Positions 31,479-50,752 of a stretch of DNA of 50,752 nucleotides are shown here, piece after piece. The notes under the pieces were generated by a model. That model did not search any database and was not told the origin of the DNA. It saw nothing but the letters and a program-made list of their open reading frames with translations. Made by a program: the position numbers and the translations under genes. The stretch lies in NCBI GenBank assembly GCA_902630715.1, contig CACOVO010000010.1:1-50752 (forward strand), read 5' to 3'. Source of the DNA: an uncultured SAR86 cluster bacterium. Lineage in GTDB: Bacteria; Pseudomonadota; Gammaproteobacteria; Magnimaribacterales; Magnimaribacteraceae. Numbering within the stretch: position 1 is the stretch's first letter; the number at the start of each line of letters is the position of its first letter.

Positions 31479-31481
31479 AAA

Positions 31482-32342: not shown

Positions 32343-32368
32343 ATAAAACACTCAATCTTTTTAAAGAC

Positions 32369-32383
32369 ACTTCTTGAAGAAGT
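32369..32383. terminator. short hairpin after the MTHFR-like gene
   Basis: ACTTCT and AGAAGT form a 6-bp stem around TGA, followed by TTCTCTT. The low stem stability makes it a weak candidate terminator between the C1 gene pair and the aminotransferase. Confidence 0.3.
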
Positions 32384-32499
32384 TTCTCTTAGTCAAACCT
32401 ATTAAATAGACAGATCTAATCAAGAATTTTGCTTCTATAGCTATTTGATTATTCACTGGGTATGTATTATTGTTTTATTGCTCAAATAAAGGAGAGGTA

Positions 32500-33864: not shown

Positions 33865-33881
33865 TCTTAGTAGAAAAAATC

Positions 33882-34694
33882 GTGAATGACAAAGATATGA
33901 AATCTCCTAACTTCATTTCATTGGATGAGGCGGCTGAAATGGAAAGTGGCACAAGAGTCACTTTTATTCCAGGCATGCAAGCACTATACGCTGAAGCATT
34001 AAAAAATATTTGTTACGTAAAAGAAATCCCACTCATCAGAGCACTTCATCCCTTAATGGGAATTGATAAGGAAACTGGAGAAGATAGACAGGCTAGATTG
34101 TACGAACTCACCAGCCAGACAAGCTTGCCAACTATGTTTCATGATCAGGACAGACCGAGGAATGTGTGGATAGAGCAGTTATCTTTGGCGGAAAATATAG
34201 GAAAAGATGATAGTCCCAAACTAATACCTGATAACCTTCAAGATCGCGTAGATATGTTTGGATTATGTGCTGTTATCCTAGGTGAGGACGGTCTGGTGTG
34301 GAATATTAGAATTCTTAATGATAGTCCATTAGCAAGAAAATATGGCTATAGTGAAAAAGCTAGCTCTGAGGCCACCGGTAAGATTGTAGATATAATAGAT
34401 TTGATAAATAATCGTCTCGAAGATCAAGAAAAAATTGGGTCTCAATATTTGATAGGTCAGTCTCTCACAGCGGCAGATATATATTGGGCTACAATGCTCA
34501 TGAGCACTATAGCAACTCCTGAGGATATCATGCCAAGAACCGAGCAAAATCAAGGAATGTTGATGTGGTTTGAAGCAAATTCAAAAATACCTGAAATTGA
34601 CAATGCCTTGACCAAGAAGATTCAAGACCATCAACACTACATTCTCAAAACATACTGCGAAACACCTGCAGTCTTGGGCGGTACTCCATTGTAA
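33882..34694 (+). CDS. glutathione S-transferase-like protein
   Basis: A 270-residue GST-fold protein. The C-terminal all-helical domain is clear from SQYLIGQSLTAADIYWAT (about 185-202), the GST N-capping box region. The N-terminal half carries IPLIRALHPLMG and is only distantly thioredoxin-like; an obvious SPxP cis-proline motif is lacking, though LPTMFHDQ may be its counterpart. The start may be the GTG at 33882 or the ATG at 33897. It lies between the aminotransferase and a CoA-binding protein in the same run. Substrate unknown. Confidence 0.8.
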   Translation: MNDKDMKSPNFISLDEAAEMESGTRVTFIPGMQALYAEALKNICYVKEIPLIRALHPLMGIDKETGEDRQARLYELTSQTSLPTMFHDQDRPRNVWIEQLSLAENIGKDDSPKLIPDNLQDRVDMFGLCAVILGEDGLVWNIRILNDSPLARKYGYSEKASSEATGKIVDIIDLINNRLEDQEKIGSQYLIGQSLTAADIYWATMLMSTIATPEDIMPRTEQNQGMLMWFEANSKIPEIDNALTKKIQDHQHYILKTYCETPAVLGGTPL

Positions 34695-34718
34695 AAAATA
34701 GAGACGAAGTATGTTCAG

Positions 34719-35123
34719 ATGGAATACTCTAACAGTCATATCAAGAAAATTCTCAAGGAAGTAAAAACCATTGCCTTAGTTGGCGCTAGCTTAAATTCAA
34801 AAAAAGATAGTTATAAAGTTATGCAATTTCTTTTGGAAAATAATTATCAGGTTTTTCCTGTAAATCCTAATGAAGCCGGTAAATATATTTTGGGGCAATA
34901 TTGCTATGCTGATTTACATTCAATAGAGGAAAATATTGATATGGTTGATGTTTTTAGAAAATCCGAGGCAGTATTTCGTATAGCAAAGGATGCCATGAGA
35001 ATAGGGTCAAAAGTTCTTTGGACTCAATTAGGTGTTGCTGATGAACAAGCAGCTTTAATGGCAAGACAAGCTGGTCTAGAGGTAATAATGAATAAATGTC
35101 CAAAAATAGAATTACAAAAATAA
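34719..35123 (+). CDS. CoA-binding domain protein, YccU-like
   Basis: A 134-residue Rossmann-fold protein. KTIALVGASLNSKKDSYKV (about 16-34) and the later VFPVNPNEAG, VDVFRKSE, WTQLGVADEQAA and CPKIEL are the conserved features of the YccU/CoA_binding family. The role of the stand-alone form is not well defined; it may bind an acyl-CoA. It lies 25 bases after the GST-like gene and 37 before a crotonase, consistent with an acyl-CoA-linked pathway. Confidence 0.88.
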   Translation: MEYSNSHIKKILKEVKTIALVGASLNSKKDSYKVMQFLLENNYQVFPVNPNEAGKYILGQYCYADLHSIEENIDMVDVFRKSEAVFRIAKDAMRIGSKVLWTQLGVADEQAALMARQAGLEVIMNKCPKIELQK

Positions 35124-35160
35124 ATCTACGTGTTTAAAATTTTTGTAAGATAACAAACTT

Positions 35161-35961
35161 ATGGCGCAAGAAAAAAATATTTTATCTGCTGATCTAAGTG
35201 AGGAGGGAGTTTTACGCTTGACAATGGACGATCAAAAGTCAAAAAATGCTCTTTCAGAAGAAATGATGACTTTTTTGATGAATGAATTACACCAATCAAT
35301 GAAAAATCATCTCGTAAAGGTCATCGTAATTGCTGCAAAAGGAGATGTCTTTAGTGCAGGGCATGATTTAAAGGAAATTACTCAGGCTAGAAAAGATACA
35401 AATGAAGGCGAGCTTTATTTCAAAAAATTGTTTGATCAGTGCTCGTCTCTTATGCAGTTTATAGTTACTTGCTCTAAGCCCATTATTGCCGAGATAGCTG
35501 GAACGGCTACTGCTGCAGGCTGTCAGTTAGTTGCATCATGTGATTTAGCATTAGCTTCTGACGAAGCTAAATTCGCAACTCCTGGAGTCAATCTGGGACT
35601 TTTTTGCTCTACTCCGATGGTTGCCCTAACTAGAGCAGTGAAGAACAAACACGCCATGGAAATGCTTCTTACGGGTGATTTTATTGATGCAACCAAAGCA
35701 AAGGAAATTGGCTTGATCAATAATCATTATCCGAAAGACGTCTTAGAAAAAGAGACAACAAAGCTCGCGAATAAAATATCTCATAAATCATCCATTGCAG
35801 TCTCAACTGGCAAGGAAGCTTTTTATACACAGTCATATCAAGATTTATCTGGAGCTTATGAATTCACTTCCAAGATAATGGTCGAAAACCTCTTAAAAGA
35901 AGAAGCTAAAGAGGGCATTGGCGCATTCTTAGAAAAGCGTAAACCGAACTTTGGAAAGTAA
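35161..35961 (+). CDS. enoyl-CoA hydratase family protein, ECHDC3-like
   Basis: A 266-residue crotonase. The distinctive FATPGVNLGLFCSTPMVALTRA reads like ECHDC3 proteins: the first catalytic glutamate of rat hydratase (PE) is PG here, while the second is kept in HAMEMLLTG. Classical hydration is therefore doubtful. The oxyanion regions FSAGHDLKE and EIAGTATAAGCQLVA are normal. There is no Shine-Dalgarno; TAAGAT occurs shortly upstream. Part of the 32500-38674 run. Confidence 0.88.
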   Translation: MAQEKNILSADLSEEGVLRLTMDDQKSKNALSEEMMTFLMNELHQSMKNHLVKVIVIAAKGDVFSAGHDLKEITQARKDTNEGELYFKKLFDQCSSLMQFIVTCSKPIIAEIAGTATAAGCQLVASCDLALASDEAKFATPGVNLGLFCSTPMVALTRAVKNKHAMEMLLTGDFIDATKAKEIGLINNHYPKDVLEKETTKLANKISHKSSIAVSTGKEAFYTQSYQDLSGAYEFTSKIMVENLLKEEAKEGIGAFLEKRKPNFGK

Positions 35962-35988
35962 ATTAATTTGATCTCTATTTTAAATATT

Positions 35989-36396
35989 ATGAATCTTCCT
36001 AAAGGTATTCTTAGGAAGTTGTCTGTATTTACCCTATCAGTTTTTTTCATAAGTTTCGGAATAGATCATTTTGTTAATCCTGAATTCTATCTTTCGATAA
36101 TGCCTCCTAATTTGCCGCTTAAACTTGAAGCGGTATATATCAGCGGACTTTTTGAAATCCTAGGTGGTGTTGGTGTTTTGATAGCATCAACTAGAAAAAT
36201 TGCTAGTCTAGGCCTAGTTGCACTTTTGGTTGCAGTCTATCCTGCAAATATCTTCATGGCATTAAACCCGGAAAGATTTCCTGAAGTATCTATTTATGTG
36301 CTGTATTTCCGTCTCATTTTGCAGTTTTTTTTCTTTTACTGGGCTTACTCTGTTTCACGCCCTTCCTTTAATCCACCGCACAAGAGGAGGACTTGA
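35989..36396 (+). CDS. DoxX-like membrane protein
   Basis: A 135-residue protein with four predicted membrane helices. SFGIDHFVNPEFYLSIMPPNLP and SGLFEILGGVGVL are typical of the DoxX/DoxD-like family, small membrane proteins linked to quinone-dependent redox processes in some organisms. I prefer the ATG at 35989; a TTG at 35968 would add seven residues. It is followed directly by a gene for a membrane-anchored NTF2-like protein whose Shine-Dalgarno (AGAGGAGG) lies inside its end. Function unknown. Confidence 0.82.
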   Translation: MNLPKGILRKLSVFTLSVFFISFGIDHFVNPEFYLSIMPPNLPLKLEAVYISGLFEILGGVGVLIASTRKIASLGLVALLVAVYPANIFMALNPERFPEVSIYVLYFRLILQFFFFYWAYSVSRPSFNPPHKRRT

Positions 36397-36398
36397 GT

Positions 36399-37052
36399 TT
36401 GGAAAATTATTTTTTTGTATTGCAATATGGCCAATGGCTGATTCTTGTCATAAGTATATGGGCACTGTATTTGGTTAGCTCAATTAAACATAAGATAAGA
36501 TTAAAAGGTTACCTCATGACCGCCTTAAGCCGATTCTCAGGGGCAGTAATATTTTTGTTCGTTGACTTATTTGCCTTTGTCATTGCCAACTTGATTCAGA
36601 CTTACATTGCTATAAGGGGATATTTACAAAATAAAAAGGTTGAAGGTGAATCTTCCATTAATCAAGAAGATATCGTGAGGAAGGCTCTGCAGGTTATATG
36701 GACCGAAGGAGACATTTCAAGAGTAGAAGAATTTTATGCAAAGAACTTCAAGGCTGACTATCCCTTTCCTGACTGGGGAGAAGGCATTGAAGGAGTATCA
36801 AATTTAGTACTGAAGGTAAGGGAAGACTTACCTGGTTATAGAGAAGACATAGAGGAACTATTCACCTCTGGTGATGAAGTAATTGTTGTTCTAAAAATCA
36901 GTGGCTTTCATCCTTCTACGCAGGAAAAAATTAGCTTTAGAGACATAACGATACTTTCCTTAGATAGGGGAAAGATAATTAAACAGCGAGGACTGTCAGA
37001 CTTGTTTAGCATGTACCTCAAACTAGGCCTCATCGAGATGCCACAAACTTAA
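36399..37052 (+). CDS. membrane-anchored NTF2/SnoaL-like domain protein
   Basis: A 217-residue protein. The N-terminal 70 residues contain two hydrophobic stretches, then a SnoaL/NTF2-like domain starts at about 85 (VRKALQVIWTEGDISRVEEFY) and runs to the end (FRDITILSLDRGKIIKQRG), a cone-shaped barrel used by polyketide cyclases and small-molecule isomerases. The TTG at 36399 lies 8 bases after AGAGGAGG; another TTG at 36393 is only 2 bases from it. It starts 2 bases after the DoxX-like stop, so they are coupled. The ligand is unknown. Confidence 0.75.
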   Translation: MENYFFVLQYGQWLILVISIWALYLVSSIKHKIRLKGYLMTALSRFSGAVIFLFVDLFAFVIANLIQTYIAIRGYLQNKKVEGESSINQEDIVRKALQVIWTEGDISRVEEFYAKNFKADYPFPDWGEGIEGVSNLVLKVREDLPGYREDIEELFTSGDEVIVVLKISGFHPSTQEKISFRDITILSLDRGKIIKQRGLSDLFSMYLKLGLIEMPQT

Positions 37053-37075
37053 TTTTTAATAAATTAGAGAATAAT

Positions 37076-37858
37076 ATGGATAACAGTCTTATATATGAAA
37101 CAGATGATGCGGTTGCGATACTTACAATAAATGATTTCCCATATAACCGAATGTCTCTTAACTTCATGGATGAACTTGAAGATCGGGTTTACAAAATTGC
37201 TGAAGATGACTCCATAAGATCAGTAGTTTTAACTGCTGCCGGATTAGACAACTTTTCTGTTGGCATGAATTTAAAGCAATTCGCAGAAGGAGTTGAAAGG
37301 AAAGGTAGTTCAGATGCATTGTTTGATCAACGTTTGAGAGTTATAAAAACAATTGAAGATATGCAGAAGCCTTGGATAGTGACTTTATTTGGTTACTGTC
37401 TGGGCGGTGGTTTAGAGTTGCCTTTAGGATGTCATTTTCGTCTTGCAGCAGATGAAGGGGCGCATATTGGATTACCAGAACTTGATTTGGGAGCTGTTCC
37501 TGCATGGGGTGGAAGCGCTCGACTAGCAAAATGCGTAGGAGAGAATCACGCCATGGACATGATCTTAAGATCTAAAAAGATATCTGGAAATGAAGCTTTA
37601 GCAATTGGACTAGTGCATGAGGTATGGCCTTTAAAAGAGCTAAAGGAAGCAGCCTTATCCTTAGCACATGAACTTGCTTCTCAACCGGCTCAGGCAGTAA
37701 AAAGTATGATGAAAGTCCTTGTGAATAGCAGTGATCGAGAATTAGAAGATCTTCTTATGGAAGAACGTAAAGCAGTCAAAGCTAACTCCGAAACAAAAGA
37801 TTCTAAAGAAGGGATGTTGGCCTTCCTAGAAAAGAGAAAACCAATATTTAATAAATGA
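37076..37858 (+). CDS. enoyl-CoA hydratase family protein
   Basis: A 260-residue crotonase. It retains PELDLGAVP (equivalent of Glu144) and has HAMDMIL at the second position, so the acid is Asp in place of Glu164; hydratase activity is plausible. FSVGMNLKQ and LFGYCLGGGLELPLG are the oxyanion segments. The C-terminal EERKAVKANSETKDSKEGMLAF is the usual helical tail. It starts 23 bases after the NTF2-like gene, as part of the run ending at the SIP-type flavoreductase. Confidence 0.9.
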   Translation: MDNSLIYETDDAVAILTINDFPYNRMSLNFMDELEDRVYKIAEDDSIRSVVLTAAGLDNFSVGMNLKQFAEGVERKGSSDALFDQRLRVIKTIEDMQKPWIVTLFGYCLGGGLELPLGCHFRLAADEGAHIGLPELDLGAVPAWGGSARLAKCVGENHAMDMILRSKKISGNEALAIGLVHEVWPLKELKEAALSLAHELASQPAQAVKSMMKVLVNSSDRELEDLLMEERKAVKANSETKDSKEGMLAFLEKRKPIFNK

Positions 37859-37885
37859 TAATATCTTTTTACTGAGTTTAATAAG

Positions 37886-38674
37886 ATGGCAGTAACAATT
37901 AGAAAACTAAACGTCGTAAAAGCTTCTGAACTAGGAAAAAGTATGAAGAGAATCACTCTTCAGGGAGATGACCTAGCCGATTTTCCTGAAAATCAAGAAA
38001 GTGGGTATGTAAAAATACGTTTTCCAAAAAATTTGGATAACGAGCCTACAAACTCAAATAAAGATTATGATCTTCGTTCATATACGATCAGAGCATTTGA
38101 TTTAGAAAAAAGAGAATTGGTTTTAGATTTTCTATTACATGGAGATAGTGGTCCGGCAAGTAAATGGGCTTCTTCGGTGCAAATAGGGGATAGCATTGAG
38201 ATAGCAGGTCCAGGTCCGGCTATCTTGGCAGCGCCCGCTGATTGGTATTTATTCGTTGGTGACATGACTGCTTTGCCAGCGATTGCAGTTAATCTTGAAA
38301 AATTACCTCCTGAATCTAGGGGATTAGCTTTACTGGAGATTAATTCCTCGGAAGATATACAAGACTTAATTAAACCAGATGCTTTTGAGGTAAAGTGGAT
38401 AATAAATTCGAATCCTTTAAATGGTTGCGAAGACCTGATTCAAGCTTTTAGTTGCGTTGATATAAAAGGTGAAAATCCTTATGTTTGGGTTGCTGGCGAA
38501 TTTGAATTGTTGCGTTTTGCAAGAAAACTTCTCAAGCATGACAAGTCTCTACCTAAAGAATCCCTATACTTGAGTTGTTATTGGAAGATAGGAGCAAATG
38601 ATCCGGAAATGAAAAAAGCTAAGGCAGCATTAATTTTATTCGATTCAATTAAAAACCTCTTCAGTTTCAATTAA
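37886..38674 (+). CDS. siderophore-interacting protein family flavoreductase
   Basis: A 262-residue SIP/ViuB/YqjH-type flavoprotein. LRSYTIRAF is the FAD-binding RxYT motif, DFLLHGDSGPASKWA and GDSIEIAGP bind the flavin phosphate region, GDMTALPAI begins the pyridine-nucleotide half, and YWKIGAND near the C-terminus is characteristic. Family members reduce ferric siderophores with NAD(P)H in the cytoplasm. The ATG at 37886 lacks a good Shine-Dalgarno. The gene is the last of the plus-strand run and overlaps the convergent NTF2-like gene by 8 bases. No siderophore receptor is adjacent. Confidence 0.87.
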   Translation: MAVTIRKLNVVKASELGKSMKRITLQGDDLADFPENQESGYVKIRFPKNLDNEPTNSNKDYDLRSYTIRAFDLEKRELVLDFLLHGDSGPASKWASSVQIGDSIEIAGPGPAILAAPADWYLFVGDMTALPAIAVNLEKLPPESRGLALLEINSSEDIQDLIKPDAFEVKWIINSNPLNGCEDLIQAFSCVDIKGENPYVWVAGEFELLRFARKLLKHDKSLPKESLYLSCYWKIGANDPEMKKAKAALILFDSIKNLFSFN

Positions 38675-39113
38675 CTGGGGAAGAATGGTGCACTTTAATT
38701 TTCATTGCCTCTCCGACTTTAGTGAATAAGAATGTAAAAGCAACAAGAGTTGTTTCTTCCTTTTTATAAGGTTTAAACTTAAGCGTACCCATTGCCCCAA
38801 TTAGATCTTCTTCAATCAAAGTATTTAATTCCTCAAGCTGAATGCTTTCCCATGGTTTAAGCGCAAAGCCATTATCCTCAGAGATATCTCCTCCGACAAA
38901 ATATGACAAAGCATCTTTTATGTTATTTCTAAAAACTATTTCCTTTGTGAAAGTGGGTTTGAATAAAACATCTGTCTCATTAAAAGCGTAATGTTTTTTT
39001 AGGAACTCAGTCGCATTAATTATATACTCACCACCCTCTAAATAGATTCTACCAATTTCGATAACTCCATTTTTCCAAGAGTTTAGAAATTCTTCTATTT
39101 TTTTTATATCCAT
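38667..39113 (-). CDS. conserved NTF2-like small protein
   Basis: A 148-residue soluble protein. FNETDVLFKPTFTKE, ALSYFVGGDISEDNGFALKPW and VHHSS match a family I recall from marine bacteria, sometimes mislabelled phosphoribosyl-AMP cyclohydrolase, with an NTF2/SnoaL-like fold. The central GGDISEDNGFAL loop and terminal HHSS are conserved. No catalytic motif is known. It stands alone on the minus strand and ends convergently with the SIP-type gene. Function unknown. Confidence 0.75.
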   Translation of the reverse strand: MDIKKIEEFLNSWKNGVIEIGRIYLEGGEYIINATEFLKKHYAFNETDVLFKPTFTKEIVFRNNIKDALSYFVGGDISEDNGFALKPWESIQLEELNTLIEEDLIGAMGTLKFKPYKKEETTLVAFTFLFTKVGEAMKIKVHHSSPVN

Positions 39114-39206
39114 TCTTAGTTCTGTTTTCTAATTTAAGTTTCTAATTTATATTACACTTAGAGAAGAGAATATTATGATTATAAAACAGAATAATCGGGA
39201 GTTTTT

Positions 39207-40052
39207 ATGAGTGATCCAAAATATGTTCCACCAAAAGTTTGGACTTGGGACACTGAAAGTGGGGGAAGATTTGCAAATATAAATAGACCAATAGCTGGCG
39301 CTACACATCAAAAGGAATTACCTGTAGGTAAACACCCTTTGCAACTCTATTCGTTGGGAACCCCAAATGGGATAAAGGTAACTATACTACTGGAAGAACT
39401 TTTGGAGTTGGGATACGAAGGTGCAGAATATGATGCATTTATAATAAACATTGGCGAGGGCGCACAATTTAGTAGTGGTTTTGTTGAAATAAATCCTAAC
39501 TCAAAAATACCTGCGTTACTTGATATGAGTACGGACCCCTCAACTAGAGTTTTTGAATCAGGCGCCATATTGGTTTATCTGGCTGAAAAATTTGGAGAAT
39601 TTCTTCCTACTGAACCCTCTGAAAGAGCGGAGTGTATGTCGTGGATATTTTGGCAAATGGGAAGTGCTCCATATTTAGGAGGCGGTTTTGGTCACTTTTA
39701 TGCATATGCACCAGAAAAGTATGAATATCCAATTAATAGATACGCAATGGAGGTCAAACGTCAATTAGATTTATTAGATAAAAATCTGAGTAATAGAGAA
39801 TATATCTGTGGAGATAAGTACAACATCTCTGATATAGCAATTCATTCATGGTATGGAACCTTGGTCTTAAATAACGCTTATGACGCCTCGGAGTTTCTAG
39901 AAGTAGATTCGTATAAGAATTTGGGACGATGGGCTAAACAAATAACTGAACGCTCTGCGTACAAAAGAGGTTCTTTGGTTAACAGAAAGCCTAATAGCCC
40001 AGACGGCAAAGAAGTGTTAGAAAGACATGACGCAAGTGATATAAAGGTTTAG
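39207..40052 (+). CDS. yghU: YghU-type glutathione S-transferase / disulfide reductase
   Basis: A 281-residue GST of the nu class. The N-terminal KYVPPKVWTWDTESGG, THQKELPVGKHPLQLYSLG, TPNGIKVTILLEELL, FSSGFVEINPNSKIPAL and GGGFGHFYAYAPEKYEYPIN closely follow E. coli YghU along the whole length, including the extended C-terminus ending HDASD. YghU binds two glutathiones and has disulfide-bond reductase activity. The ATG has GGGAG upstream (39198). It is transcribed convergently toward the nucleobase permease, whose stop is 3 bases away. Confidence 0.95.
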   Translation: MSDPKYVPPKVWTWDTESGGRFANINRPIAGATHQKELPVGKHPLQLYSLGTPNGIKVTILLEELLELGYEGAEYDAFIINIGEGAQFSSGFVEINPNSKIPALLDMSTDPSTRVFESGAILVYLAEKFGEFLPTEPSERAECMSWIFWQMGSAPYLGGGFGHFYAYAPEKYEYPINRYAMEVKRQLDLLDKNLSNREYICGDKYNISDIAIHSWYGTLVLNNAYDASEFLEVDSYKNLGRWAKQITERSAYKRGSLVNRKPNSPDGKEVLERHDASDIKV

Positions 40053-41524: not shown

Positions 41525-41554
41525 ATTATTTTGGTTGCAAGACAAGGATTTTTA

Positions 41555-43894
41555 ATGAAATTATCAAATTCCCTTTTTAGGTCTTTCCTCTCAACCTCCC
41601 TTGCGCTCTCAATAACCTTGATTAGTTCGAATGTCATCTCGAATGAGTTGGTCATCGATGAGGTTACTGTTACTGCGGAGAAAAGAGTAGAAAGTTTACA
41701 AGACGTTTCTAAAGCCGTCACAGCTCTTAGCAGTGATGAAATAGAGAGAAAAAACATTGTTGATTTTGTTGGCCTCAGCGCGATAGCGCCAGGGGTTACA
41801 GTTGCAAAAAACGAAGGATATAAAACAATTATATCTATTCGTGGGGTCGGGGACGAAACGAATCAAAATGCTATTGCTGCTCCATCAGTTGCACTTCATA
41901 TGGATGGTATATTCATAGCCTCGAAGTTCTCTTTAAGAACTGATTTTATTGATCTCGATAGAATTGAGGTGCTTAGAGGTCCGCAAGGGACACTTTTTGG
42001 ACAAAACTCCACCGGAGGTACGGTCAATGTAATAAATACCCTACCTTCATTTGATGAAATGACTGGTAAAGTCGACTTAACTCTCGGTGATTACGATTTA
42101 ACTAAAGCTAGAGGAGGAATAAATATTCCTATAACTGAATCTGTCGCTACAAGATTTTCTTGGGTTACAACAGATCAAGACGGTTTTTCCGAAAACTTAG
42201 TAAACGGACAAGACTTAGATGATACGAATCATACTACTCTTCGAACAGATTGGCTTTTTGATATAGGTGATTCTTCAAGTTTGAGGGTATTTGCACAGTA
42301 TTTTGATGCTGAAAATAATGGTGCAGCCATGAAGGGTCTTGATGATCCTACCCCAGACCCTAGACAGCTTAGGCAAGACTCAGCTTCAGTATATGAACTT
42401 ACTTCAGAAATTTTTGCGGGAATTTTTAATACCGATTTAGGTTTTGCAAATCTAAAAATTCTTGCAAGTATGCAAGAGGATGATATTTACGTCATGAGAG
42501 ACAATGACAGACATAATTTTGGTGATGTGCATGCAGATGGACCTATGGCGGGCTTTCCTTATAACAGAGCTGAGTACAGACCCGAGACCTCGTTAGTAGA
42601 AACTTCTACCTTAGAAATAAATCTTATTTCTAATGAACCCCTTTTTGGAAATACCGACTGGATCCTTGGTGCCTTTTACTTTGATCATGAGATTGAAAAC
42701 AACATTTATGAAGTCAAAGATGTTAATAATAACAAACAAGCTGCGTTAATGGATGGCCAGTTTACGCCTTATGTTCATGCATCTGTTTGCGCATCTAATC
42801 CTTTCGCTGGTCCATGTTTTGCGGCTTACGACGCAGAACTTGGATTTGTATCTGAAGCTTATCCAACAAGAGAGTCTCAATCTCTTTATGGTCAAGCTAC
42901 AGTTAATATCAATGATATGAACAGAATAGTTTTCGGATTGAGGTATACAGAAGACGAGTTTTCAAGTGATGTAACTAACTTTTTTGGACTTCAAAAGTAT
43001 CTTATTCAAGACGAGTTGGACGAAACTACTGGTAGATTGGCTTACGAGCATGATTTAAATGACTCCACAATGGTATACATATCTTACACAAAAGGTTTCA
43101 AGCCCGGAGGTAGTAATTTAACTTTTGGATATCCAGAGGATGATGAAGGTTTTGGGGCGGCTCCGGCACCTCAATTGATTTTTCCTTTCTTTGAAAGTGA
43201 AATGATTGATGCTTACGAAGTTGGCCTTAAAACAGATTTCCTTGAAGGAAGAATGAGAGCAAATGTTTCTGCATTTACTTATGACTACGAGAATCTCCAA
43301 TTTCAATCAACTGATCCTGATATATACAGAGGAGGAGTAGCGAACATTCCTGAATCTGAAATGAAAGGTATAGAGCTTGAACTGATAGGTCTTATCTCAG
43401 AGTCTCTATCTTTTGATTTAAGACTTGCATACTTGGATACAGAAATTACTTCTTCTTATGAGGCTCTTGATAATCTAAATGCAGAATTGTATTTTTTCGG
43501 TGAGGAACCAATCCGCTATTCGCTTAGAGAAAACTTAAGAGGTAATAAACTGGCTAAAAGTCCCGAGTTAACAGGGAACCTCGGCATTGAGTACAATACA
43601 GATACTACGTATGGTCTTTTCACTGCAACTGCAGAATTGATATACAGGGGAGACTTCCAACAGAGAGTTTTTAATAATCCTTTTGTCGATCAAGTTGATT
43701 CTTACTCAATAGTTAATTTCACAGCTAGCCTAGACTTAGTCGGAGACGAGTGGGGAATAGATTTAATGCTTCTTAATGCTGGAGATAAAGACGGAATGAA
43801 TTCGAGTATGACAGATGTATTTGGAGTAGCTGGTACGGGTATTGAATACATTCCTCCTAGACAGTTAATGGGCAGAGTAAGTTACAAGTTTTAA
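41555..43894 (+). CDS. TonB-dependent outer-membrane receptor
   Basis: A 779-residue receptor. A signal peptide (SFLSTSLALSITLISSNVIS) precedes a TonB-box-like VIDEVTVTAEKR and the plug domain with RGPQGTLFGQNSTGGTVNVIN. The barrel fills the rest and ends in GRVSYKF with the terminal aromatic. The ATG at 41555 has AAGGA upstream. The substrate is unknown; it is divergent from a purine permease and followed by a phosphoribosyltransferase, so nucleobases or nucleosides are a hypothesis. Siderophores, vitamin B12 or other ligands are equally possible from sequence alone. Confidence 0.92.
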   Translation: MKLSNSLFRSFLSTSLALSITLISSNVISNELVIDEVTVTAEKRVESLQDVSKAVTALSSDEIERKNIVDFVGLSAIAPGVTVAKNEGYKTIISIRGVGDETNQNAIAAPSVALHMDGIFIASKFSLRTDFIDLDRIEVLRGPQGTLFGQNSTGGTVNVINTLPSFDEMTGKVDLTLGDYDLTKARGGINIPITESVATRFSWVTTDQDGFSENLVNGQDLDDTNHTTLRTDWLFDIGDSSSLRVFAQYFDAENNGAAMKGLDDPTPDPRQLRQDSASVYELTSEIFAGIFNTDLGFANLKILASMQEDDIYVMRDNDRHNFGDVHADGPMAGFPYNRAEYRPETSLVETSTLEINLISNEPLFGNTDWILGAFYFDHEIENNIYEVKDVNNNKQAALMDGQFTPYVHASVCASNPFAGPCFAAYDAELGFVSEAYPTRESQSLYGQATVNINDMNRIVFGLRYTEDEFSSDVTNFFGLQKYLIQDELDETTGRLAYEHDLNDSTMVYISYTKGFKPGGSNLTFGYPEDDEGFGAAPAPQLIFPFFESEMIDAYEVGLKTDFLEGRMRANVSAFTYDYENLQFQSTDPDIYRGGVANIPESEMKGIELELIGLISESLSFDLRLAYLDTEITSSYEALDNLNAELYFFGEEPIRYSLRENLRGNKLAKSPELTGNLGIEYNTDTTYGLFTATAELIYRGDFQQRVFNNPFVDQVDSYSIVNFTASLDLVGDEWGIDLMLLNAGDKDGMNSSMTDVFGVAGTGIEYIPPRQLMGRVSYKF

Positions 43895-43988: not shown

Positions 43989-44558
43989 ATGGAAAAACAC
44001 TACATTGGAGCAGCGGAATTACTTGAAGATTCCTATAAGCTTGCATGGAAAGTATATGAGAGCGGCTACAGACCAAATTATCTTGTTGGAGTTTGGCGAG
44101 GAGGTGCACCGGTTGGAATAGCTGTACAGGAGCTCTTTGATGTGCTGGGAGTCGAGTCAGATCATATTGCCATTCGAACTTCTTACTACTCTAGCCTTGG
44201 AAAGACCAATGAAAGTGTTCAAGTTTATGGTTTAAGTTATTTGATAAAGAAACTTGAATCAGAAGACTCATTGCTGATAGTTGATGATGTCTTTGACACT
44301 GGAAAATCGATAGACCAAATTATCATAGATTTGTCTACTGCATGTAAAAAAAATACACCTGAAATTCGTATTGCAACCCCTTATTTCAAGCCCTCAAAAA
44401 ATAAAACACATAGAAAGCCTGACTATTTTCTGCACCAAACTGACAAATGGCTTGTATTTCCGCATGAACTTGAGGGTCTTTCTGCCAATGAATTAATTGA
44501 AAATAAGCCTGAATTAAAAGATCTTATTGATCATATAATTCCAAAAATTAAATCCTAA
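43989..44558 (+). CDS. type I phosphoribosyltransferase, hypoxanthine/guanine-type
   Basis: A 189-residue PRTase. The PRPP loop is LLIVDDVFDTGKSID (about 96-110) and VGVWRGGAPVG (about 34-44) is the pyrophosphate-binding region. Such proteins convert a purine base plus PRPP to a nucleotide, and neighbouring an NCS2 permease makes a salvage role likely; the family also includes other 6-oxopurine and uncharacterised PRTases. There is no Shine-Dalgarno, but TGTAAGAT ends 8 bases before the ATG, so the transcript may start nearly at the codon. Confidence 0.85.
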   Translation: MEKHYIGAAELLEDSYKLAWKVYESGYRPNYLVGVWRGGAPVGIAVQELFDVLGVESDHIAIRTSYYSSLGKTNESVQVYGLSYLIKKLESEDSLLIVDDVFDTGKSIDQIIIDLSTACKKNTPEIRIATPYFKPSKNKTHRKPDYFLHQTDKWLVFPHELEGLSANELIENKPELKDLIDHIIPKIKS

Positions 44559-44676: not shown

Positions 44677-45429
44677 ATGAGCAATAAAATAATTTATGGA
44701 GTACCTTTCTCTCAGCCTGTGAGAGCTGTTCTATGGTTGTGTATGATTAAGAAATTTCCATTTGAGTTAAAACTAACAAATCCTGGATCTTCTTCAGAAG
44801 GAGGAAGTAGACATCCTAAATACCTAGAAAAATTCCCTACCGGAACCATACCAAGCTTTGAGGATCCAGAAACTGGATTTGTTCTTTCTGAATCTCATGC
44901 GATTATGTGTTATCTATGCAACAAATATAATTGGAATGACCTCTATCCTGATAATTTAGAAGAAAGAGCAAAGGTAGATTCTTATCTTCATTTACACCAC
45001 AGAAATGTCAGAGAGGCCTCAATTGGCTTAGTTGCGCCGAAGGTGAGAAAAGACCTGTATTTTTCTGAGGATTTTATCAATACATCGAGAGGTAATGTTG
45101 AAAAGGCATTTAAGGCAATGGAAGAAGGATGGTTATCTGAATCACGATTCTTAGTTGGAGACAATTTAACCATTGCTGATATTTCTGCTTACGTAGAAAT
45201 AGGGCAACTACAAAAATCATTTACGAATGTCTATGACTTCGGATCTTTACCAAATATACAAAGATGGCTTGGCGAAATGAGAAATATAGATTCGCATGAT
45301 GATATTCACATAGCTCTCTATGAACTAGGTGATATTAGTAAAGAGGCTCCTTCAATGGAAACTATTAAGAATGCCAATAAGAAAGCTTTTGCAGCCATAC
45401 AGGATAAATTATCTAATATGAAAAATTAA
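44677..45429 (+). CDS. glutathione S-transferase
   Basis: A 250-residue GST, theta-like. IIYGVPFSQPVRAVLWLC starts the thioredoxin domain, FPTGTIPSFEDPETGFVLSESHAI carries the cis-proline and the E-S pair contacting GSH, and ESRFLVGDNLTIADISAYVEI is the C-terminal N-capping box. Ser/Cys in the first segment (PFSQP) would be the GSH-activating residue. It is the first gene of a same-strand run ending in a PhoD-like gene, with an SDR 10 bases downstream. Its electrophilic substrate may be an intermediate of that pathway (inference). Confidence 0.9.
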   Translation: MSNKIIYGVPFSQPVRAVLWLCMIKKFPFELKLTNPGSSSEGGSRHPKYLEKFPTGTIPSFEDPETGFVLSESHAIMCYLCNKYNWNDLYPDNLEERAKVDSYLHLHHRNVREASIGLVAPKVRKDLYFSEDFINTSRGNVEKAFKAMEEGWLSESRFLVGDNLTIADISAYVEIGQLQKSFTNVYDFGSLPNIQRWLGEMRNIDSHDDIHIALYELGDISKEAPSMETIKNANKKAFAAIQDKLSNMKN

Positions 45430-45439
45430 AGGAGCTTAA

Positions 45440-46327
45440 ATGAAAAATTTTGAAGGGAAAACTGCTGTTGTAACTGGTGCGGCTAGTGGAATAGGTAAAG
45501 CACTAGCTCATAAATTTGCCAACGAAAAAATGCAGGTCGTTTTGGCAGATGTAGAGGAAGATGCTTTAGAAAATACTGTAAAGGAATTAAGGCAATATCA
45601 ACATAGGGTTATCGGAGTTAAGACAGACGTTTTAATTGAGGAGTCCATACAAGAATTATTTTCTAGGGCAAGTGAGGAGTATGGAAATATTCATATTCTT
45701 TGCAACAATGCTGGTATAGGTGCTAATTCAGGAGATAAGGCTATTTGGGAAATAGAAAAACATGATTGGGACTGGGTTATGGGAGTAAATTATCAAGGAG
45801 TACTCAGTGGCATTCAAAATTTTCTACCACATATGCTAGAACACGGTGAATCTGGTCATGTAGTCACAACTGTATCATTGGCAGGATTATTGCCTGGAGC
45901 AGGAACATACGGTGTAAGCAAGCATGCAGTTTTAGCTCTTACAGAGGCTTTAAATAGAGATCTATTAGCAAGAAATGCAAATATAAGTGCTTCTGTGTTA
46001 TGTCCAGGTTTTGTTGATACAAATATAGACAAATCAGAGAGAAACAGACCCAACAGCTATGGTGAACCAAGAGAAACCCTCCCAGAAGTCGGTGCAGAAT
46101 TTCTGTCTGCCATGTTACGCCAAGGAAAGAAACCTGACGAAATTGCTGATATTGTTCTTCAGGCTATAAAAGATAATGTCTTTTACATCCTAACCCATCC
46201 AGCTTGGGATGACACACTTAGATCTCATTTCGACAATATACTCTCTAGGAAAGAAATTGATAGAAGTACAGAAGAGGAAGAGCTTGCTAAATTTTTTACT
46301 CCACGTGAGGATGGTGAAAAATACTAA
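45440..46327 (+). CDS. SDR-family NAD(P)-dependent oxidoreductase
   Basis: A 295-residue classical SDR. TGAASGIGKALA is the cofactor glycine motif (12-23), NNAG (about 89-92) and the catalytic serine/tyrosine/lysine in TTVSLAGLLPGAGTYGVSKH are complete, so it should be active, unlike the variant at the window start. ADVEEDA near 35 suggests NAD over NADP. GGAG precedes the ATG at 45440. It overlaps the next oxidoreductase by 17 bases, showing translational coupling. Confidence 0.92.
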   Translation: MKNFEGKTAVVTGAASGIGKALAHKFANEKMQVVLADVEEDALENTVKELRQYQHRVIGVKTDVLIEESIQELFSRASEEYGNIHILCNNAGIGANSGDKAIWEIEKHDWDWVMGVNYQGVLSGIQNFLPHMLEHGESGHVVTTVSLAGLLPGAGTYGVSKHAVLALTEALNRDLLARNANISASVLCPGFVDTNIDKSERNRPNSYGEPRETLPEVGAEFLSAMLRQGKKPDEIADIVLQAIKDNVFYILTHPAWDDTLRSHFDNILSRKEIDRSTEEEELAKFFTPREDGEKY

Positions 46328-47645
46328 TAACATGATAGAACTAACAGACAAATTGGATTTACCCTGTGGCGCTAAAATAAAAAATCGTATATGCAAAGGT
46401 GCAATGACAGAAGGTTTGGCAGATGAACAAAACAGAGCAACTCATAAGCATGTAAATTTATATGATAAATGGTCCGCAGGAGGAGCAGCGATTCTTTTGA
46501 CAGGTAATGTTCAAATTGATCATAGGTATCTTGAGAGACCCGGAAATGTTGTAATAGAAGGAACTCAAACTAATGAACAAATATCAAGACTAACTTCTTA
46601 CGCTGAAGCTGGTACAAAAAACGATACCCACTTATGGATGCAAATTTCTCATGCTGGAAGACAAACACCTGCGTCAGTATCAGATGAGCCTGTTGCACCC
46701 TCTGAAGTCCAACTTAAAATGCCAGGCGCACAATTTGGAAAGCCCAGAGCACTGAGCCACGAGGAGATATTGGATATCATTGATAGGTTTGCCTACTGCT
46801 CAGCTATTGCAAGAGATACAGGATTTACAGGAGTTCAAATTCATGGAGCTCATGGATATTTAGTTTCAGAATTCCTCTCTCCTGATATTAATTTACGGGA
46901 AGATGATTGGGGTGGATCATTAGAAAAAAGAGCTAAACTTCTCCTAGAAATTATTAGATCAGTCAGAAATACAGTGGGAGATAAATTCCCCATTTCATTG
47001 AAATTAAATTCTGCAGATTTTCAAAAAGGGGGATTTTCTCATGAAGATTCTATTCAAGTTGCTTCTTGGCTAAACGATGAGGGCTTAGATCTTTTAGAAA
47101 TCTCTGGAGGAACTTATGAACAACCTCACCTCGTGGGTCTTGATGATATGAGCATGAATCCCGAAAGAGCTGAGAAGAGAAGAGAAAGTACAATTGCAAG
47201 AGAGGCATATTTTCTTGATTACGCAAAAGATATAAGGAATGTTTTTAAGGGACCCCTTATGGTTACTGGTGGGTTTAGAAGTACAAAGGGTATGACCGAT
47301 GCCCTAAATGCAGACGCGTGTGATGTAATTGGAATTGCGCGCCCTTTTTGTATAGACCCAAACATAGCGAATAAGCTGCTCGAAAAGGAGATTTCAAAAA
47401 CACCAGTTTTGGAAAAGACCATGCAAATAGGACCTGGTTGGCTAGGTGTGAATTCTCCCTTTAGGATTCTCAAAGGTATAAATGGTTGGGGACAACAAGC
47501 CTTTTGGTGTCTAAACCTTATTAGAATGGGAGAAAATCTAGATCCAGATTTAGATCTTGGAGTTTTTAAAGCATTTTTGGATTATCAAAAGAACGAAAAA
47601 AAGTCTGCCAAAAAGTATAAAGAATTTAGGCAAAGCTTATATTAG
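46311..47645 (+). CDS. Old Yellow Enzyme-family NADH:flavin oxidoreductase
   Basis: A 444-residue FMN barrel enzyme. KIKNRICKGAMTEGLAD starts the fold, LWMQISHAGRQTP and IHGAHGYLVSEFLSPDINLR are the flavin/substrate motifs, and VTGGFRS with IGIARPF ends the barrel; the 70 C-terminal residues are an extra helical extension. The ATG at 46311 overlaps the SDR end; an ATG at 46332 beginning MIELTDK is nearly as good and closer to where homologues usually start. A second member of this family lies at 3020. It probably reduces an alkene within the GST-SDR pathway (inference). Confidence 0.9.
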   Translation: MVKNTNNMIELTDKLDLPCGAKIKNRICKGAMTEGLADEQNRATHKHVNLYDKWSAGGAAILLTGNVQIDHRYLERPGNVVIEGTQTNEQISRLTSYAEAGTKNDTHLWMQISHAGRQTPASVSDEPVAPSEVQLKMPGAQFGKPRALSHEEILDIIDRFAYCSAIARDTGFTGVQIHGAHGYLVSEFLSPDINLREDDWGGSLEKRAKLLLEIIRSVRNTVGDKFPISLKLNSADFQKGGFSHEDSIQVASWLNDEGLDLLEISGGTYEQPHLVGLDDMSMNPERAEKRRESTIAREAYFLDYAKDIRNVFKGPLMVTGGFRSTKGMTDALNADACDVIGIARPFCIDPNIANKLLEKEISKTPVLEKTMQIGPGWLGVNSPFRILKGINGWGQQAFWCLNLIRMGENLDPDLDLGVFKAFLDYQKNEKKSAKKYKEFRQSLY

Positions 47646-47721
47646 AGCTTGAGGATTCTTAAATTTTTCCTAATTAATCATCACTAAGTAAAAAATGATG
47701 TAATATGTTTAGTTATAAATT

Positions 47722-47727
47722 TATAAA
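47722..47727 (+). promoter_or_regulatory. -10 box of a probable leaderless gene
   Basis: TATAAA ends six bases before the ATG at 47734, the same geometry as guaB. No Shine-Dalgarno is seen. It would be an internal promoter in the GST-SDR-OYE-aminotransferase run. Confidence 0.45.
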
Positions 47728-47733
47728 TTAATC

Positions 47734-48528
47734 ATGAATATTGAAGCAGAATTTAATTATAGAAATCCTTTAAAAGAAAATGAAAGTAAGCCTGCATTTG
47801 GACTTTCCGAAGAAGATCCAAATATGCCTGACCACAAATCCTTCAAAAAGACCGTTCATAATGCTAGAGAGTTGGGCTTTGATATAAGTATGGGCGGCTT
47901 TGAACTACTCGATCATAAATCTTCAGTAGTTGATTTTTATAATGATGAAGAAGTTGCTAATACATACTACGGTGAAATGACAGATCTTGTTAAACAAAAA
48001 GTTGGTGCTGATCTGGTACAAATTGTTTCTCATATAACTAGGAATGAAGCTCAGGCTGAATCTGGTGAAAGAAAGGGCGGACATAGATTGGTACACAATG
48101 ACTTCACCACTAGCTTTGGCAAAACACTAGATCCTTTCTTGCAAGAGACTGGGATGAAGCCAAAAAGAATAGTTGTTTATAATCTTTGGAGACGGTTTGA
48201 TAAAGATGGATTAGACACTCCTTTTGCTGTTTGTGACAAGAGGACAGTAACTGAGAAAGAGTTAATTCCTACAGACCTCTTTAATTATCTTCCAGATCAA
48301 ACTCAATCCTTGACAGTTGAAATTTGTCAGTCTTCTAATAGCGATGCACATAAATGGTATTTTTATCCGAATATGCAAAGAGACGAAGTTCTTATGTTTA
48401 GCACCTATGATTCTGATGAAAATCCTTTCATACCAACTCTGCATAGCGCTTTTGATTATCCCAATTGCCCCGAAGGAGTGACACCAAGAGAAAGCATTGA
48501 AGTTAGGGCGGTGTGTTTTTTTAATTAA
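47734..48528 (+). CDS. CmcJ/AsaB/NvfI-family oxidoreductase
   Basis: A 264-residue protein resembling the CmcJ (cephem methoxylase P8 chain), AsaB and NvfI group. VHNDFTTSFG carries the first histidine, YNLWRRF and FAVCDKRTV follow, then MQRDEVLMFSTYDSDE and SAFDYPNCPEGVTPRESIEVR, the conserved C-terminal block. Members are cupin-fold enzymes, some non-heme iron/2-oxoglutarate-dependent, making hydroxylations or rearrangements in secondary metabolism and degradation. Promoter geometry suggests a leaderless message. The aminotransferase gene starts 4 bases after its stop, implying co-operation on one pathway. Substrate unknown. Confidence 0.82.
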   Translation: MNIEAEFNYRNPLKENESKPAFGLSEEDPNMPDHKSFKKTVHNARELGFDISMGGFELLDHKSSVVDFYNDEEVANTYYGEMTDLVKQKVGADLVQIVSHITRNEAQAESGERKGGHRLVHNDFTTSFGKTLDPFLQETGMKPKRIVVYNLWRRFDKDGLDTPFAVCDKRTVTEKELIPTDLFNYLPDQTQSLTVEICQSSNSDAHKWYFYPNMQRDEVLMFSTYDSDENPFIPTLHSAFDYPNCPEGVTPRESIEVRAVCFFN

Positions 48529-48532
48529 CTAA

Positions 48533-49750
48533 ATGAAAAATACTACCTACGAAGTAAAAAAATCTGACGAGTTCTTTAAAAAAGCGAAAGAAGTTATTCC
48601 TGGTGGTATCTTCGGACATTACAAATATGCCGTAAGGGACTCAGGTCCTAAGTTTTTTTCAAAATCTGAGGGGGCATACTTTTGGGATCTCGATGATAAT
48701 AGATACGTCGATCTCATGTGTGGATATGGGCCATCTATTTTAGGTTACAACCATCCAGAGGTAGAAGAGGCTTTTAAATCTTCATCAATGAAAGGGAACA
48801 CAGTGAGTGTCGCCTCACCGGTGATGGTAGATTTAGCTGCTAAATTAGTTGAAATGGTTGATATTGCTGACTGGGCTCTTTTCGGAAAGAACGGAGGAGA
48901 TGCAACCAGTCTCGCAGTTATGATAGCAAGAGAGTTCACTGGAAAGAAAAAAATTATCAAAATAGATGACGGCTATCACGGTGTTGCACCATGGATGCAG
49001 GATAAAGATAGACCAGGCATTATCTCGTCTGACAGCGAACACGTGCTAAAAGTAAAGTGGAACGATATAGGCAGTTTAGAGAAACTCCTTACCCTAAATA
49101 ATGATGTAGCTTGTTTTATTTCCTCCCCATACGATCATCCGGTAATGAGAGATAACTCTATAGCGGAAACTGGTTATTGGGAAAATGTGACAAAATTATG
49201 TAAGAAACACAATGTTCTTACAATTGTCGATGATGTGAGGGCCGGATTTAGAATAAATTTAAGAGGTTCAAATGTGTCATTTAATTTTGAGCCAGATATG
49301 ATTTGTTTTGGTAAAGCTATTGCAAACGGTCATCCTCTGGCTGCATTAGTTGGAAAAGAAGCATTGAGAGAGGCGGCTGAAAGCGTTTACTTCACAGGAA
49401 CCCAATTTTTTAGTGGACCTCCAATGGCAGCCGCATTAGCTACTCTTGAAGAACTTGAAAAGGTAGATGCTCCTTCAGTTTTGATCAAATATGGGGAGAA
49501 ATTGAATCAAAGGTTAGAGGGAGTTGCATCTGAAAAAGGGTTCAATCTCATAGCATCAGGAATGCCTTCCATGCCTTATTACCGTTTAGAAGGTGTAAGT
49601 TTCGAAACTCATATTAAATGGATAGATGAGTGTGTGAAACGCGGAGTATATATGCTTGCCTATCATAATCACTTTGTTTCTTTAGCTCATACAGAAGAGG
49701 ATATTGATTTTATTGAGTCTGCTGCCAAACAAGCTTTCGAGAATTTATAA
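48533..49750 (+). CDS. class III aminotransferase, glutamate-1-semialdehyde aminomutase-like
   Basis: A 405-residue PLP enzyme. VIPGGIFGHYKYAV opens the protein, LFGKNGGDATSLAVMIAREF corresponds to the phosphate-binding loop, VDDVRAGFR to the DE-V motif (with Glu replaced by Asp), and the PLP lysine is in CFGKAIANGHPLA. The N-terminal layout resembles HemL-like and other aminomutases. A paralogue lies at 32500. It is 4 bases from the CmcJ-like gene upstream and 7 from the PhoD-like gene downstream. Either transamination or 1,2-amino shift is possible; the amine is unknown. Confidence 0.88.
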   Translation: MKNTTYEVKKSDEFFKKAKEVIPGGIFGHYKYAVRDSGPKFFSKSEGAYFWDLDDNRYVDLMCGYGPSILGYNHPEVEEAFKSSSMKGNTVSVASPVMVDLAAKLVEMVDIADWALFGKNGGDATSLAVMIAREFTGKKKIIKIDDGYHGVAPWMQDKDRPGIISSDSEHVLKVKWNDIGSLEKLLTLNNDVACFISSPYDHPVMRDNSIAETGYWENVTKLCKKHNVLTIVDDVRAGFRINLRGSNVSFNFEPDMICFGKAIANGHPLAALVGKEALREAAESVYFTGTQFFSGPPMAAALATLEELEKVDAPSVLIKYGEKLNQRLEGVASEKGFNLIASGMPSMPYYRLEGVSFETHIKWIDECVKRGVYMLAYHNHFVSLAHTEEDIDFIESAAKQAFENL

Positions 49751-49757
49751 GACTCAA

Positions 49758-50752
49758 TTGTATTCAAGAAGAACCTTCTTAAAACTTTCCGCTGCACTTA
49801 CTGCAATACTTGCTGGAGGGTTTTTTTTTAAAGGATCAAAAGATCAAAAGGTAAAACATATTCTCTCTTCTGCTAGCCATGAAAAACTAGCAGTAACTCT
49901 TTCGTTGTCTCAAGCAACCAGCGAAATGGGTCTCTTACTGGATGATGATTACATGGTAAAGGGCGTTAGTACGGATTCGGAAGGGAAGCATTGGCAGTTT
50001 ATAGTCAATAATCTATCACCGAATAAATCCTATAAACTCCAGTTAGTATCAGAAAACGTGAATATTTATAAAGCCTGGTCACTTAAAACATTTCCTGAAC
50101 CCCATTCGGAGATTGATTCATTAAAAGTCATGTCTTTTACATGTCCAGGTGGAGGAGATGGCTTTAGAGCTTCAGGAAGAGAATTCTTCAAGCCTTTTAA
50201 ATTCAGACAAAATATATTCGAGGAAGGATTATCAAAAAATCCTGACATAGTTATTTCTATTGGTGATCATGTTTATTGGGATTTGAGGGGACAAGACTCT
50301 CCGCCTGTTGGAAGAAATAGTAAATTAATCAAATTTTTTTTAGGAGGATATCTTCGATTGAGATATGGCGCCTTTAATAGAAATGAGACAGTAAATAGTA
50401 TAGTTAATGAGAAGGTCCTGAAAAGAATTGGTAACGAACAAATTGCCTCTTTATATGGAACGAAATTCAAAAGTGTACCCATTTTTTTCATCCCAGATGA
50501 CCATGATTATTTTGAGAATGATGACGCCGAAGAGGAAATTGTTACTTTTCCAGCAGATAAATTTAGTAAATACGCTTTTAGAAAAATGGCCGATTTATTC
50601 TATCCACCTTTATTAGACACACCTGATGGTGAACCTGGCAGACACACTGGGAGAATTAGATATGGAAATATCTTTGAAGGCTTGATGGCAGATTGCGCAG
50701 GGAATATGACTCTTGGTAATGATAAAGCACTACTTATTTCTAACGAAGATGA
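49758..50752 (+). CDS. Tat-exported PhoD-like metallophosphatase, 3' end cut by window
   Basis: The frame starts at a TTG (49758), 7 bases after the aminotransferase stop, and stays open to the window end (331 residues so far). SRRTFLKLSAALTAIL near residues 3-18 is a textbook twin-arginine signal, so it should be exported folded. Later SFTCPGGGDGF, ISIGDHVYWDL and FIPDDHDYFEND match the metal-ligand motifs of PhoD-type alkaline phosphatase / phospholipase D families (GDxxY and DDHD). The start assignment rests mainly on the Tat motif, since no ATG lies near and no Shine-Dalgarno is seen. The substrate (phosphomonoester or phosphodiester) is unknown. Confidence 0.8.
   Translation, partial: MYSRRTFLKLSAALTAILAGGFFFKGSKDQKVKHILSSASHEKLAVTLSLSQATSEMGLLLDDDYMVKGVSTDSEGKHWQFIVNNLSPNKSYKLQLVSENVNIYKAWSLKTFPEPHSEIDSLKVMSFTCPGGGDGFRASGREFFKPFKFRQNIFEEGLSKNPDIVISIGDHVYWDLRGQDSPPVGRNSKLIKFFLGGYLRLRYGAFNRNETVNSIVNEKVLKRIGNEQIASLYGTKFKSVPIFFIPDDHDYFENDDAEEEIVTFPADKFSKYAFRKMADLFYPPLLDTPDGEPGRHTGRIRYGNIFEGLMADCAGNMTLGNDKALLISNED

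What the first reader, a model, noticed from the sequence alone, without database searches (positions are those of the whole stretch)
44677..49750. GST-SDR-OYE-CmcJ-aminotransferase operon of unknown pathway
Five enzymes sit in one direction, with coupling by overlap (45440/46311) and 4-base spacing (47734/48533). The set combines glutathione conjugation, redox, ene-reduction, an AsaB/NvfI-type oxidoreductase and PLP chemistry. No known pathway I recall uses this exact combination, and a Tat-exported PhoD-like gene follows. It may degrade or make a small specialised metabolite.
Basis: inference. Interest (0 to 1): 0.6.

Follow-up and report, generated by a model that had tools for sequence, protein, structure and literature searches.

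The report
Shuffled enzyme cassettes in SAR86 hotspot
Five neighbouring enzyme genes in an ocean SAR86 bacterium are real, but relatives show they were assembled piece by piece in a variable stretch of the genome rather than inherited as one pathway, and the gene labelled heme-type is most like an enzyme that strips nitrogen from fumonisin-type toxins.

Summary
The five genes and their spacing are as described. The window is a whole contig of a SAR86 draft genome. The single-pathway reading is not upheld. In 19 genomes of the same genus, GST, SDR+OYE and PhoD come and go between fixed anchors (TonB receptor and phosphoribosyltransferase upstream; TauE/SDR/photolyase downstream); one genome lacks the block. 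CmcJ-aminotransferase is the only constant pair, and only in this genus: elsewhere in the order the two lie 60-70 kb apart or on different contigs, each occurs without the other, and in the second SAR86 family their presence is uncorrelated (Fisher p=0.64). The 'HemL-like' aminotransferase is not HemL: it groups with FumI (38% identical, 100/100 support, fold Z 49.6 versus 44 for the next). CmcJ keeps the iron and 2-oxoglutarate residues of NvfI. Two partnerships recur: GST beside CmcJ in three unrelated gammaproteobacteria and in SAR86; OYE beside CmcJ in a second SAR86 family in opposite order. Best reading: a modular hotspot of oxidation/deamination enzymes for lipophilic compounds, substrate unknown. 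Each enzyme belongs to a known family; new are FumI-type transaminases in two SAR86 families and the cassette hotspot.

The parts
41531..43894 (+). TonB-dependent receptor, left anchor of the variable region
   Evidence: Pfam; 86-91% identical at the same place in relatives
43989..44558 (+). Phosphoribosyltransferase-domain protein, left anchor; cassettes follow it
   Evidence: PF00156; conserved in relatives
44677..45429 (+). GST; optional cassette
   Evidence: Pfam GST_N/GST_C; absent in G023; next to the aminotransferase in genus g6
45440..46327 (+). SDR (closest NCBIfam PRK06194); gained/lost together with OYE
   Evidence: absent together with OYE in G022, G023, G030
46311..47645 (+). Old-yellow-enzyme type ene-reductase (HGAHGY active-site motif); start ATG 46311
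   Evidence: PF00724; closest solved 7FEV; sequence
47734..48528 (+). CmcJ/NvfI-family Fe(II)/2-oxoglutarate oxygenase; H121, D123, H237, R252 conserved
   Evidence: NF041278; NvfI alignment; invariant in 23 sequences
48533..49750 (+). FumI-type class-III aminotransferase (PLP Lys261), not HemL
49758..50752 (+). Tat-signal PhoD-like protein, cut by contig end; optional
   Evidence: absent in G032

Best explanation
A cassette hotspot in SAR86. Between fixed anchors (TonB receptor and phosphoribosyltransferase on the left; TauE permease, SDR and photolyase on the right) each lineage carries its own set of small-molecule enzymes. In this genus the constant core is CmcJ plus a FumI-type aminotransferase, with GST, the overlapping SDR-OYE pair, an amidohydrolase, a TPR protein, a PhoD-like protein and a further GST as optional additions. 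Inferred mechanism: the CmcJ protein oxidises (hydroxylates or desaturates) a lipophilic compound using Fe(II), O2 and 2-oxoglutarate; the aminotransferase removes an amino group from a bulky or long-chain amine, giving a ketone and passing the nitrogen to a keto acid; SDR and OYE, where present, interconvert alcohol/ketone and reduce activated C=C; GST handles electrophilic products. Shown: gene content, modularity, FumI grouping, conserved active-site residues. Inferred: substrates, joint action, import by the receptor.
For: Presence/absence of modules between fixed anchors in 19 genomes of the genus. The anchors hold different cargo in genus g6: SOUL, beta-lactamase-like, GST, aminotransferase, penicillin amidase, DAPG hydrolase. 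CmcJ and aminotransferase unlinked and separately absent elsewhere in the order. FumI clade 100/100, 38% identity, fold Z 49.6 vs 44.4. CmcJ invariant Fe/2OG residues. GST directly upstream of CmcJ in 3 of 16 non-SAR86 genomes (GST about 0.5% of genes; binomial p 7e-5 to 5e-4). CmcJ next to OYE in f2 genus g9 with opposite order.
Against: Within the genus CmcJ-aminotransferase stays together in every genome where both sides are visible, so the pair could be a real functional unit there. No substrate evidence of any kind. FumI identity of 38% is too low to carry over the substrate. Recurrent neighbours could reflect a shared insertion region rather than shared chemistry. Most genomes are incomplete drafts.
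Confidence: 0.6

Rival explanations
1. One dedicated five-enzyme pathway: the genes form an operon that makes or degrades one specialised metabolite, and genomes lacking some genes have a shortened version.
For: One strand, short gaps, 17-nt overlap; full set in most genomes of the genus.
Against: GST and SDR-OYE lost without disturbing the rest; CmcJ and aminotransferase each occur alone elsewhere; aminotransferase sits beside LysC-AlaS, often with a GMC oxidoreductase, in family f2; 88-nt gap before CmcJ.
Confidence: 0.12
2. Degradation of sphingoid-like or other long-chain amino-alcohols: the receptor imports the lipid, CmcJ/SDR oxidise it, and the FumI-type enzyme removes the amino group, as FumI does with hydrolysed fumonisin.
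For: FumI clade membership; FumI transfers the C2 amino group of hydrolysed fumonisin B1 to pyruvate (PMC2933618); some related alphaproteobacterial genes also lie near TonB receptors.
Against: No carboxylesterase of FumD kind among the annotated genes of 30.4-50.7 kb; 38% identity only; substrates of the SAR86 enzymes untested.
Confidence: 0.15
3. The aminotransferase is a heme-pathway glutamate-1-semialdehyde aminomutase and its neighbours are unrelated.
For: Best NCBIfam model is the HemL subfamily; no gene above the HemL cut-off in 35 related genomes.
Against: Score 211-224 bits versus cut-offs 398-527; FumI scores twice as high as HemL (298 vs 157 bits); tree excludes HemL; the gene is absent from several relatives.
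Confidence: 0.03

Closest known systems
FumI aminotransferase of Sphingopyxis MTA144 (PDB 6HBS/6HBV)
   Same: 38% identity over 390 residues; same clade; shared KNGxDAT, DDVRAGFR and GK..ANG motifs; best fold match
   Different: Substrate unknown; no fumonisin esterase among annotated neighbours; SAR86 sequences form their own branch
CmcJ/NvfI/EfuI oxygenase family (NvfI, PDB 7DE2)
   Same: Over the family cut-off; conserved H-x-D...H and Arg of the iron/2-oxoglutarate site
   Different: Only distantly like NvfI (80 bits); product unknown; bacterial genomic setting
Old yellow enzymes (7FEV; YqjM; 2,4-dienoyl-CoA reductase)
   Same: FMN ene-reductase domain with H..H.Y active-site motif
   Different: Lacks the second domain of 2,4-dienoyl-CoA reductase; optional gene, substrate unknown
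SAR86 peripheral catabolism and high GST copy number (PMC11582366)
   Same: Many GSTs, TonB receptors and oxygenases described across SAR86; GSTs proposed to process hydrophobic compounds
   Different: The passages found in that paper do not describe this locus, its cassette variation or FumI-type enzymes (term search only)

Membership tests
FumI-type class-III aminotransferase | Groups with FumI apart from HemL | tested here: met
   Tree 100/100; 298 vs 157 bits; Z 49.6 vs 44.4
FumI-type class-III aminotransferase | PLP lysine and motifs shared with FumI | tested here: met
   K261, N120-G121-x-D123, V235-R236 invariant in 17 sequences and present in the aligned FumI sequence
FumI-type class-III aminotransferase | Deaminates a hydrolysed fumonisin-like amino-alcohol with pyruvate | not testable with these tools
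   needs an enzyme assay
HemL (TIGR00713) | Score over curated cut-off 527.3 | tested here: not met
   211 bits
CmcJ/NvfI family (NF041278) | Score over curated cut-off 80 | tested here: met
   205.8 bits
CmcJ/NvfI family (NF041278) | Fe(II)-binding H-x-D...H and 2OG-binding Arg | tested here: met
   NvfI iron triad positions 135, 137, 250 (PMC8292354)
Fumonisin (fum) degradation cluster | FumD-type carboxylesterase beside the aminotransferase | tested here: not met
   none among annotated genes of 30.4-50.7 kb
Lignin beta-ether (Lig) pathway | Calpha-dehydrogenase plus LigE/F/G-type GST | tested here: inconclusive
   SDR matches Calpha-dehydrogenases (130-142 bits) but 5IG2 better (212); no Lig GST recognised among the 60 listed GST matches
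Single conserved operon/pathway | Genes kept together across relatives | tested here: not met

The most novel reading that the evidence does not exclude
SAR86, among the most abundant ocean bacteria, uses a FumI-type transaminase fed by a TonB receptor and an NvfI-type oxygenase to break down a hitherto unnoticed class of marine long-chain amino lipids (sphingoid-like or polyketide amines).
Probability: 0.13. Interest if true: 0.65.

Novelty: new member of a known kind. Interest (0 to 1): 0.35.

Why it matters
It corrects an easy annotation error (HemL for a FumI-type enzyme) in an abundant ocean clade, gives testable enzymes for turnover of lipophilic amines, and shows that gene spacing in streamlined genomes can suggest pathways that relatives do not support.

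Tried and rejected
HemL role of the aminotransferase: rejected. Lig-type beta-ether cleavage: considered because the SDR resembles Calpha-dehydrogenases; the GST shows no such match in the listed hits. CmcJ-aminotransferase co-occurrence as a pathway sign: significant in f1 only because of this genus (p=0.0017 with it, 0.23 without it, 0.64 in f2). Co-occurrence outside SAR86: none of the CmcJ-positive genomes of the class sample has the aminotransferase at E<=1e-60. Structure of the PhoD-like protein: model too poor to use (mean pLDDT 43.5). Paper search for SAR86 with fumonisin: nothing relevant. A TonB receptor in the fum cluster, recalled from memory, could not be confirmed in held papers. 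The origin of the OYE's closest solved relative 7FEV could not be confirmed.

Full report
Setting. The window is a whole 50,752-base contig of a 1.26 Mb draft genome, 64% complete. Close relatives in public collections are SAR86-cluster Gammaproteobacteria at 77-82% protein identity.

Observation. The five genes, their strand, the 17-nt SDR/OYE overlap and the 4-nt CmcJ/aminotransferase gap are as stated. Family assignments hold. Two details change: an 88-nt gap separates OYE from CmcJ, and the PhoD-like gene is cut by the contig end and scores below Pfam's cut-off even when complete.

Conservation inside the genus. Reading the same region in 18 further genomes shows fixed anchors and exchangeable cargo. 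Left anchors: permease, TonB receptor, phosphoribosyltransferase. Right anchors: TauE-type permease, SDR, photolyase, DUF4396, ACT, GST. In between: amidohydrolase and TPR genes in some; GST absent in G023; SDR and OYE both present or both absent wherever both sides are visible (absent in G022, G023, G030); PhoD absent in G032; an extra GST in most. CmcJ-aminotransferase is the only constant pair. In G021 no CmcJ, FumI-type gene, GST or OYE was found, and the 20 kb beyond its second aminotransferase holds none of the block; that genome is 74% complete.

Conservation outside the genus. In genus g6 the same anchors hold SOUL, beta-lactamase-like, GST, aminotransferase, penicillin amidase and DAPG-hydrolase genes, while CmcJ lies elsewhere beside PEP carboxykinase. 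In family f2, CmcJ (33 of 40 genomes) and the aminotransferase (31 of 40) lie 60-70 kb apart in the genomes where both positions on one contig were compared (for example G040, G061, G063, G068); the aminotransferase is beside LysC and AlaS, often with a GMC oxidoreductase, and CmcJ lies within several genes of a GST. CmcJ without the aminotransferase: G036, G051, G055-57, G059, G070. The reverse: G001-4, G014, G015, G037, G039, G044, G065, G074. Their presence is uncorrelated in f2 (p=0.64) and not significantly associated in f1 without this genus (p=0.23). The other 128 genomes of the order have neither. The CmcJ tree places f1 genera g3 and g4 among f2 sequences, which fits movement between lineages (moderate support).

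Aminotransferase. The closest solved structure is FumI (6HBS, 298 bits) against 157 bits for HemL proteins. A tree puts the SAR86 sequences with FumI and alphaproteobacterial relatives, apart from HemL (100/100; the program warns of long branches at that join). A predicted model (pLDDT 87.7) matches FumI best (Z 49.6, rmsd 1.7, 394 aligned; next 44.4). FumI moves the C2 amino group of hydrolysed fumonisin B1 to pyruvate (PMC2933618). At 38% identity the reaction type is a fair inference; the substrate is not.

CmcJ. Over the family cut-off. H121, D123, H237 and R252 are invariant in 23 sequences, including distant ones, and align with the iron and 2-oxoglutarate site of NvfI. PMC8292354 gives the iron ligands at positions 135, 137 and 250; its text names 137 as His and 250 as Asp, whereas the aligned chain, allowing for a 20-residue numbering offset that I inferred, has Asp and His there.

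Partnerships. Outside SAR86, three of 16 CmcJ-positive gammaproteobacterial genomes, in different families, have a GST directly upstream on the same strand. With GSTs at about 0.5% of genes (gene totals estimated from genome size) that is unlikely by chance. In SAR86 genus g8 another GST is directly beside CmcJ, and in this genus GST is directly upstream when SDR-OYE is missing. In f2 genus g9, CmcJ is followed by an OYE that is 55% identical, in the opposite order to here. These suggest that CmcJ products often need GST or ene-reductase follow-up; this is inference.

Conclusion. The string of genes is real, its reading as one pathway is not supported, and the best description is a modular hotspot of peripheral small-molecule enzymes with a FumI-type transaminase and an NvfI-type oxygenase as the genus-level core.

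Noticed in passing
window 32470-33864: A second class-III aminotransferase (330 bits to HemL, below the 527 cut-off; closest solved are a mycosubtilin synthase aminotransferase domain and HemL, about equal). No gene in 35 related SAR86 genomes reaches the HemL cut-off, so the route to heme precursors in this family is unclear.
   Followed up: partly
L038:7748-14516; L040: In genus g6 the same hotspot carries SOUL heme-binding, beta-lactamase-like, penicillin amidase (closest solved: D-succinylase) and DAPG-hydrolase genes, suggesting amide and aromatic-ketone hydrolysis.
   Followed up: partly
window 30363-40052: Upstream same-strand run: GcvT, MTHFR, aminotransferase, CoA-binding protein, two enoyl-CoA hydratases, SnoaL-like, siderophore-interacting flavoprotein, GST; largely conserved in the genus.
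   Followed up: no
L149, L150, L154: FumI-like aminotransferases in other Pseudomonadota lie within a few kb of TonB receptors (L149, L150) and PfkB-type kinases; L150 and L154 also carry DMFA2_C (dimethylformamidase-like) genes.
   Followed up: partly
L056:1027-2364: G031 has a second OYE (54% identical to the window's, 61% to the f2 g9 OYE) beside a gene of the same cluster (saccharopine-dehydrogenase-like) that neighbours OYE in g9.
   Followed up: no
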